This document shows, one piece after another, positions 46,561 to 48,347 of a DNA stretch of 57,170 nucleotides. The notes beneath the pieces were generated by a model. The model was not told where the DNA came from. It searched no databases and saw only the letters and a program-made list of their open reading frames with translations. A program made the translations under genes and the position numbers. This DNA comes from Deltaproteobacteria bacterium (GTDB lineage Bacteria; Desulfobacterota; Syntrophorhabdia; Syntrophorhabdales; Syntrophorhabdaceae). Location: assembly GCA_029553295.1 (NCBI GenBank), contig JAKPCK010000151.1:1-57170 (forward strand), given 5' to 3'. How positions within the stretch are numbered: the first letter of the stretch is position 1; each line of letters starts with the position of its first letter.

Positions 46561-46617
46561 ATGACAAAGATAATAATACTGAGCCTCATGGTCCTGATAA
46601 CCATATTGGGGTGCTGA
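46561..46617 (+). CDS. possible 18-residue lipoprotein-signal peptide (mini-lipoprotein)
   Basis: An ORF preceded by AAAGGA at seven to eight bases encodes MTKIIILSLMVLITILGC followed at once by TGA. The product is a complete type II signal peptide: Lys near the N-terminus, a hydrophobic core and an ILGC lipobox, with the stop immediately after the cysteine. Processing would leave a single lipidated cysteine. It may be a broken entericidin-like gene or a real tiny lipopeptide. Nothing recognisable continues in frame after the stop. Confidence 0.4.
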   Translation: MTKIIILSLMVLITILGC

Positions 46618-46730: not shown

Positions 46731-46760
46731 TTGACAAAAAACTAAGTGAATTGCTATATT
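46731..46760 (+). promoter_or_regulatory. sigma-70 promoter of rpoD
   Basis: A perfect TTGACA (46731-46736), an 18-base spacer and TATATT (46755-46760) with an extended TGC before it. Transcription should start near 46767, about 65 bases before the rpoD ATG and 20 bases before a terminator-type hairpin. Confidence 0.75.
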
Positions 46761-46786
46761 TAAACAAGGATGCAGAAAAAACTCAT

Positions 46787-46816
46787 GCCCTTTTAAAATT
46801 TAAAAAGGGCTTTTTT
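46787..46816 (+). terminator. intrinsic terminator or attenuator in the rpoD leader
   Basis: GCCCTTTT (46787-46794) pairs with AAAAGGGC (46803-46810) across a short A/T loop and is followed by six T (46811-46816). It lies between the predicted rpoD promoter and the ribosome-binding site (CTGGAG), so it may attenuate rpoD or simply end an upstream transcript. Confidence 0.7.
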
Positions 46817-46832
46817 ATATTCTGGAGATAAC

Positions 46833-48347
46833 ATGAGCATAAAAAATTATAGTGAAATTAAACACTTAATAGATATGGGCATGGAAAAGGGTTATCTCAC
46901 ACCAGATGAGATAAACGATGTCCTGCCCCAAAACATATTCTCACCGGAAGACATAGAGGATATCTTTGATTTTCTTTCAGAATCCAATATCGATATAGTA
47001 GAAACAATAAAAGAAAAGGTAGAGGTGCCAGAGGAGACTACCCATGAATGGACAGAGACCGAAAAGTTTCCCTCCGAGAGGACAGACAACATCATATGGT
47101 CATATCTTAAGGATATTGGTAAGGTCTCTCTCTTGACATCTGATGAGGAATATACAATAGCAAAAAAGATAGAGGAAGGTGAAAGGAGTATAAGAAAACT
47201 ACTCTTTGACCTCCCCCAGGCTATAAAAGAATTACAGGAGATAGGCGCACAGTTAAAAAAAGAAAATCTGAATATCATAGATATACTCAAGAATATAGAC
47301 GAGATGAACTATACAAAAAAGGATGAGGAGAAATACAAAAAAAGGACCATTACATTAATCAACAACGTCAAAAACCTCTTTGAAAAAAAAGAGGAACTCA
47401 AAAAGGCCATATCTAAATCTGAGGCTGGGCAGAAGAAACAATATGAAAAGAAATTAAAGGCGCTGGAGGCCAAGATTGATGAGAACCTGCTGAATTTGAG
47501 CCTCAACAAAAAAGTCCTTGAGGAGATAATAAAAAAGGTATCCAGGCAGATTGATTTCCTTGATGAACAAGAGGCAGATACTGTAAGGAAAAAATTGAAA
47601 GAGATAGCAGCCATAGAGAACGGGCTCAAGGCTGTAAAGAATAGGCTCATACAGGCAAACCTGAGGCTCGTTATAAATATAGCCAAGAAATATCTCAACA
47701 GAGGCCTCTCATTCCTTGACCTTATACAGGAAGGTAATATGGGGCTTATGAAGGCTGCAGAGAAATACGACTATCAGAAGGGTTATAAATTCTCCACATA
47801 CTCTACATGGTGGATCAGGCAGGCAATAACAAGGGCAATAGCAGATTATGCAAGGACAATCAGGGTCCCTGTCCATGTCCTTGAGACCATGAACAAGATA
47901 ACAAAGGTTACCATCTCCCTATTTCAGGAACTGGGGAGGGAGCCAAGCCTGGAGGAGATATCAGTAAAGGCAGGACTTCCTGTAGAGAAGGTCCGCAAGA
48001 TCATGAAGGTATCCAATGAGCCTATATCCATAGAGACACCCATAGGGGATGACGAATCAAAGCTCGGTGACTTCATAGCAGACCCCAAGTCACCTTCACC
48101 CTTTACAGAGCTTGTTACAATCTCTTTGAAAGAGGAGATATCAAAGGTCCTCTCCACACTTACCCCAAGAGAGGAAAAGGTGATTAGGATGAGGCTGGGT
48201 ATAGGTGAAAAGACAGATTATACCCTTGAAGAGGTAGGAGAGGTATTCGGGCTCACAAGGGAGAGGATAAGGCAGATAGAGGCCAAGGCCTTAAGAAAGC
48301 TTAAACACCCCTCAAGGCGCAAGAGACTTGAAAGCTTCCTTGAATAG
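46833..48347 (+). CDS. rpoD: RNA polymerase primary sigma factor RpoD (sigma-70 group 1)
   Basis: A 504-residue primary sigma factor. Region 1.1 is at the N-terminus (about residues 1-60, [20 protein letters not shown]) and region 1.2 has [18 protein letters not shown] rather short non-conserved region separates it from region 2 ([40 protein letters not shown]). Region 3 has [13 protein letters not shown], and region 4.2 ends [19 protein letters not shown]. Complete group 1 features mark it as the housekeeping sigma. No dnaG lies upstream, unlike the usual macromolecular-synthesis operon. A strong promoter and a terminator-like hairpin lie directly upstream. Confidence 0.96.

What the first reader, a model, noticed from the sequence alone, without database searches (positions are those of the whole stretch)
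46731..46832. Terminator hairpin inside the rpoD leader, about 20 bases after the promoter
A near-consensus extended promoter is followed by an intrinsic terminator and then the rpoD ribosome-binding site. A tiny ORF, MQKKLMPF (46770-46796), ends inside the rising arm of the hairpin, so translation could open it. This looks like attenuation of the housekeeping sigma factor, or a source of a roughly 50-base RNA.
Basis: partly seen in the sequence, partly recalled or inferred. Interest (0 to 1): 0.6.

Follow-up and report, generated by a model that had tools for sequence, protein, structure and literature searches.

The report
Conserved stop signal before sigma-factor gene
In an order of uncultured anaerobic bacteria, the gene for a main-type RNA polymerase sigma factor has a strong promoter followed at once by a transcription stop signal, kept in every close relative examined, so many starts probably abort and those that read through set how much sigma factor is made.

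Summary
A near-consensus promoter (46731-46760) is followed, about 20 nt after the predicted start, by an intrinsic-terminator hairpin (46787-46810 plus T6), then the ribosome-binding site and an rpoD-type gene (46833-48347). In this one sequence it is no better than chance. Conservation decides it: 39 of 39 orthologous leaders in Syntrophorhabdales have a terminator at the same place, against 5.8% of shuffled leaders and about 1% of genes in the genome. Loop and upper stem vary with compensating changes, so what is kept is a hairpin with a T-tract.

The mini-ORF is not conserved (its nearest relative reads ATG-TAG) and has no usable ribosome-binding site. The gene is not the dnaG-linked rpoD, which lies elsewhere without such a hairpin; it is a second, standalone RpoD. 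That copy nevertheless keeps sigma region 1.1 and is the better conserved of the two, so it may still be the primary sigma.

Best reading: a promoter-proximal attenuator that discards part of all transcripts as ~50-60 nt RNAs, working like the E. coli greA/GraL leader. What modulates readthrough, if anything, is unknown.

The parts
46731..46760 (+). sigma-70-type extended promoter: TTGACA-18-TATATT with TG
   Evidence: 11/12 match; -35, -10 and TG recur in nearly all orthologs
46767..46786 (+). short A-rich leader before the hairpin (start site predicted from promoter spacing, not mapped)
   Evidence: no conserved sequence, structure or ORF; 14-52 nt in orthologs, mostly 20-30
46770..46796 (+). 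mini-ORF MQKKLMPF, judged not functional
   Evidence: not conserved; no spaced ribosome-binding site
46787..46810 (+). intrinsic-terminator hairpin
   Evidence: 39/39 orthologs; compensating changes in the upper stem and outer pairs
46811..46816 (+). T-tract of the terminator
   Evidence: kept as T6-T7 in most orthologs, TTCTTT in some
46824..46827 (+). GGAG ribosome-binding site of the sigma gene
   Evidence: GG is kept at the same place in the alignment
46833..48347 (+). standalone RpoD-type sigma factor gene (called RpoD2 here), 504 aa with regions 1.1, 1.2, 2, 3, 4
   Evidence: Pfam and NCBIfam; separate from the dnaG-linked rpoD on contig C143

Best explanation
The element is a promoter-proximal transcription attenuator of a standalone RpoD-type sigma gene. 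RNA polymerase starts often from the strong promoter, makes 20-30 nt of largely unstructured leader, and at the hairpin and U-tract part of the complexes stop and release a ~50-60 nt RNA; the rest read through into the ribosome-binding site and the gene. The terminator thus caps, and probably tunes, sigma synthesis at the elongation step, by a property of RNA polymerase or its factors and not by a competing RNA structure or a translating ribosome. Shown here: anatomy, conservation, absence of a conserved alternative fold or ORF. Inferred: that termination occurs, its efficiency, and that readthrough is regulated (feedback through RNA polymerase/sigma state, as with GreA at greA/GraL, is the favoured form).
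For: 39/39 orthologs have the terminator 14-30 nt before the ATG, directly downstream of the conserved promoter. The hairpin is kept with changing loop length (about 8 to 18 nt between CCC and GGG) and compensating pairs: 93.5% of cells paired, covariation score 0.253 against 0.167 in shuffles, 0/500. Variable spacing argues against a rigid DNA operator. In the window the upstream neighbour is divergent, as in many relatives, so the terminator cannot belong to it. A more divergent paralog group (L036-L038, L165, L166, L169) has the same order, promoter then hairpin, with an unrelated hairpin sequence. A model of the hairpin and ribosome-binding site finds sigma genes of this family as its strong hits in 46 genomes; the weak hits inspected were mostly ordinary gene-end terminators or spurious matches. 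dnaG-linked and other-lineage RpoD genes lack it at this place.
Against: No RNA data: neither the start site nor the 3' end is mapped. Fast-evolving paralogs have lost the hairpin, so it is not needed by every copy. The G-C core hardly varies, so covariation support is confined to the upper stem and outermost pairs. No signal, ligand or factor has been identified, and constitutive partial termination would give the same sequence pattern.
Confidence: 0.55

Rival explanations
1. Passive set-point: a constitutive leaky terminator that lowers output from a strong promoter, without regulation.
For: No conserved antiterminator, ORF or sigma-pause motif in the leader; core hairpin energy stays between -7 and -13.4 kcal/mol.
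Against: A weaker promoter would do the same at less cost; both strong promoter and terminator are kept across an order and in close paralogs.
Confidence: 0.25
2. The product that matters is the released ~50-60 nt RNA, acting in trans.
For: Strong promoter and terminator form a small-RNA unit, and GraL of greA does act in trans (PMC6829880).
Against: The part outside the hairpin is not conserved between clades, so there is no conserved target-pairing sequence.
Confidence: 0.08
3. The palindrome is a DNA operator downstream of the promoter (roadblock repressor).
For: ATGCCCT / AGGGCAT arms are nearly constant.
Against: Half-site spacing varies from about 8 to 18 nt and a T-tract always follows on the sense side.
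Confidence: 0.05
4. Ribosome-controlled attenuation: translation of the mini-ORF MQKKLMPF opens the hairpin.
For: The ORF ends at the edge of the 5' arm; one relative has MKLKTLPF in the same place.
Against: The 96%-identical relative reads ATG-TAG; most other leaders have no comparable ATG ORF; no spaced ribosome-binding site; no regulatory codon run.
Confidence: 0.04
5. PyrG-type attenuation: reiterative transcription adds bases at the 5' end, which pair with the pyrimidine-rich 5' arm (GCCCTTTT).
For: Sub-threshold match to Rfam PyrG_leader, 27.3 bits, over the whole element; 5' arm CCCTTTT is pyrimidine-rich.
Against: Gathering score is 65; the alignment lays the model's G-run on the -10 region; no G-run at the predicted start in the leaders listed.
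Confidence: 0.03

Closest known systems
greA leader / GraL of Escherichia coli
   Same: Gene for an RNA-polymerase-binding factor; strong promoter; about 19 nt of leader, then an intrinsic terminator in the 5' UTR; short RNAs of 37-59 nt; about 1/3 read through; feedback by GreA in cis (PMC6829880). The MG1655 leader shows the same layout with my caller.
   Different: No sequence relation; the GraL hairpin ends about 100 nt before the ATG, here 16-25 nt; the gene is a sigma factor; feedback is untested here.
PyrG_leader (RF02371)
   Same: Promoter, short leader, pyrimidine-rich 5' arm, terminator, ribosome-binding site.
   Different: Score far below gathering, no G-run at the start, gene is not pyrG.
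Ribosome-mediated attenuators (trp/his/ilv leaders, pyrBI)
   Same: Terminator in the leader of a protein gene.
   Different: No conserved leader peptide and no competing structure.
rpsU-dnaG-rpoD macromolecular synthesis operon
   Same: RpoD gene under termination control elsewhere in the operon (established knowledge of E. coli).
   Different: The window gene is not in that operon; its dnaG-linked paralog has only a 16-bp gap and no hairpin.

Membership tests
Intrinsic-terminator leader attenuator (general kind) | promoter, terminator hairpin with U-tract, then ribosome-binding site and gene | tested here: met
Intrinsic-terminator leader attenuator (general kind) | termination in vivo with regulated readthrough | not testable with these tools
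   needs RNA ends or reporters
Intrinsic-terminator leader attenuator (general kind) | conserved competing antiterminator structure (classical form) | tested here: not met
   no common fold before the hairpin; energies near those of shuffles in most orthologs
Ribosome-mediated attenuation | conserved, translatable leader peptide | tested here: not met
PyrG_leader (RF02371) | Rfam gathering score | tested here: not met
   27.3 against 65 bits
PyrG_leader (RF02371) | G-run at the start site for slippage | tested here: not met
GraL-like (works like, not member) | short leader, terminator and ~50-nt RNA on a gene for an RNA-polymerase factor | tested here: met
   layout only
GraL-like (works like, not member) | autogenous control through the terminator | not testable with these tools
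   needs sigma overexpression with a leader reporter
Group 1 (primary) sigma factor | region 1.1 and RpoD C-terminal domain | tested here: met
   PF03979 E=4e-18; TIGR02393 357.4 against cut-off 354
Group 1 (primary) sigma factor | is the only or the dnaG-linked RpoD of the genome | tested here: not met
   second RpoD beside dnaG on C143
Group 1 (primary) sigma factor | essential for growth | not testable with these tools
   uncultured MAG

The most novel reading that the evidence does not exclude
An order-wide sigma homeostat: the primary-type sigma with region 1.1 lies outside the dnaG operon and is controlled at elongation by a promoter-proximal terminator whose readthrough responds to RNA polymerase or sigma state, while the dnaG-linked RpoD has lost region 1.1 and become the accessory one.
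Probability: 0.2. Interest if true: 0.75.

Novelty: new variant of a known kind. Interest (0 to 1): 0.5.

Why it matters
Control of primary-type sigma genes is usually described at initiation, by anti-sigma factors or by proteolysis (general knowledge). A terminator conserved for a whole order directly after the promoter of such a gene would mean that sigma supply is set during early elongation. It also gives a ready set of about 40 natural variants for testing what tunes readthrough of a very short leader. The finding that these genomes hold two RpoD types, with region 1.1 on the copy outside the dnaG operon, bears on how the housekeeping role can shift between paralogs.

Tried and rejected
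Mini-ORF translation. PyrG-type slippage, from a weak Rfam hit whose alignment puts the G-run on the -10 region. Sigma-dependent pause motif in the early transcribed region: 22 of 31 leaders against 19.5 expected, no signal. Shared leader on other genes, a regulon: weak model hits inspected were mostly gene-end terminators. Trade-off between hairpin strength and T-tract as a sign of a tuned set-point: no correlation. Comparison with gene-end terminator strength in the same genome: inconclusive, the set was noisy. Literature: no paper found on a leader terminator of an rpoD gene or on Syntrophorhabdus sigma genes in the held library.

Full report
What is there. The window belongs to a 2.25-Mb genome (contig C95) whose nearest named relatives are Syntrophorhabdaceae. 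Upstream of an rpoD-type gene (46833-48347) lies TTGACA-18-TATATT with an extended TG (46731-46760), then the hairpin GCCCTTTT/AAAAGGGC (46787-46810) with TTTTTT, then GGAG (46824-46827). In this single sequence the hairpin is not exceptional: the 12-kb scan finds 10 terminator-like sites with 10.0 expected, and the leader folds with z = -1.43.

Conservation. Leaders of relatives from two collections show the same order: promoter, hairpin, T-tract, ribosome-binding site. With one fixed caller, 39 of 39 orthologous leaders (about 75% protein identity or more; families f1, f2 and f58 of the order) have a terminator ending 14-30 nt before the ATG; shuffled leaders give 45 of 780. Of 238 genes in about 300 kb of the same genome, with a somewhat stricter energy cut-off, 3 do, one being this gene. 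Of the other two, one is a P-type cation ATPase with a long leader that may itself be riboswitch-controlled, though Rfam does not match it.

It is the hairpin that is kept. The core ATGCCC/GGGCAT is nearly constant, but the upper stem and outer pairs change with compensation and the loop side varies so that CCC and GGG lie about 8 to 18 nt apart. A T-tract always follows on the sense side. This fits an intrinsic terminator and not a DNA operator of fixed spacing. A divergent paralog group has an unrelated hairpin in the same position after its promoter. In the window the upstream gene is divergent, as it is in many relatives, so the terminator does not end an upstream transcript there.

What it is not. 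The mini-ORF is MQKKLMPF here, ATG-TAG in the 96%-identical relative, MKLKTLPF in another, and absent or unrelated in most; it has no spaced ribosome-binding site. The leader before the hairpin (mostly 20-30 nt) has no conserved structure, and a -10-like pause motif is not enriched. The weak PyrG_leader match (27.3 bits, gathering 65) puts the model's G-run on the -10 region. A covariance model of the element finds family sigma genes as its strong hits in 46 genomes of the order; the weak hits inspected were mostly ordinary gene-end terminators or spurious. One exception, a leader of the same layout before a very short reading frame in G143 (L242, L243), was not resolved.

Which sigma factor. 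The genome has another RpoD directly after dnaG on contig C143, with a 16-bp gap and no hairpin. At E <= 1e-90, 43 of 46 genomes of the order have at least one RpoD of the window's type; three MAGs showed only a copy of the dnaG-linked type. In a tree of regions 2-4 the window's type forms one fully supported group (26 rows), apart from the four dnaG-linked copies and 26 RpoDs of other lineages of the phylum. The dnaG-linked copy lacks a Pfam match to region 1.1 in all four genomes tested, while the standalone copy has it. Between the same genome pairs the standalone copy is 92-98% identical in regions 2-4 against 74-91% for the dnaG-linked one.

Mechanism. The simplest account is partial termination a few tens of nucleotides after a strong promoter, giving ~50-60 nt RNAs and limited readthrough. 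The best-studied parallel found is greA of E. coli: about 19 nt of leader, an intrinsic terminator, 37-59 nt GraL RNAs, about one third readthrough, and feedback by GreA in cis (PMC6829880; layout checked). Feedback here is inference. A passive set-point remains the main rival. That the element terminates transcription at all (regulated or passive, with or without a role for the RNA) I hold at about 0.88; that its readthrough is regulated, at about 0.55.

Limits. All evidence is sequence-based; start and end of the RNA are predicted; orthologs are not independent; most genomes are MAGs.

Noticed in passing
window 46561-46617 (+): Short ORF MTKIIILSLMVLITILGC*, with AAAGGA before it: a signal peptide that ends at a lipobox cysteine followed at once by a stop. 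L005 (MIKIIILAIITLISLMGC*) and L006 (MIKRIIFYFPLFLTLAGC*) have diverged equivalents upstream of the same gene, and L039 one ending in SSC*; possibly a minimal lipopeptide.
   Followed up: partly
G000 contig C143 (L110 3879-5414) and L114-L116: The dnaG-linked RpoD of Syntrophorhabdales lacks a Pfam match to sigma region 1.1 and evolves faster than the standalone RpoD, which keeps it.
   Followed up: partly
L111-L113 (G097) and L148-L177: Several standalone RpoD paralogs per genome (four in G097); the fast-evolving ones have lost the leader hairpin or moved it.
   Followed up: partly
L183 7960-8200 (-): P-type cation ATPase with a long leader and a terminator 26 nt before the ATG; it resembles a manganese-type riboswitch by eye but has no Rfam match.
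   Followed up: partly
L242 and L243 (G143 contig ends): A promoter-like stretch, the same hairpin type and a ribosome-binding site stand before a reading frame of only 8 codons (MANKRSEM), on two contig ends, so probably a repeat or a decayed copy.
   Followed up: no
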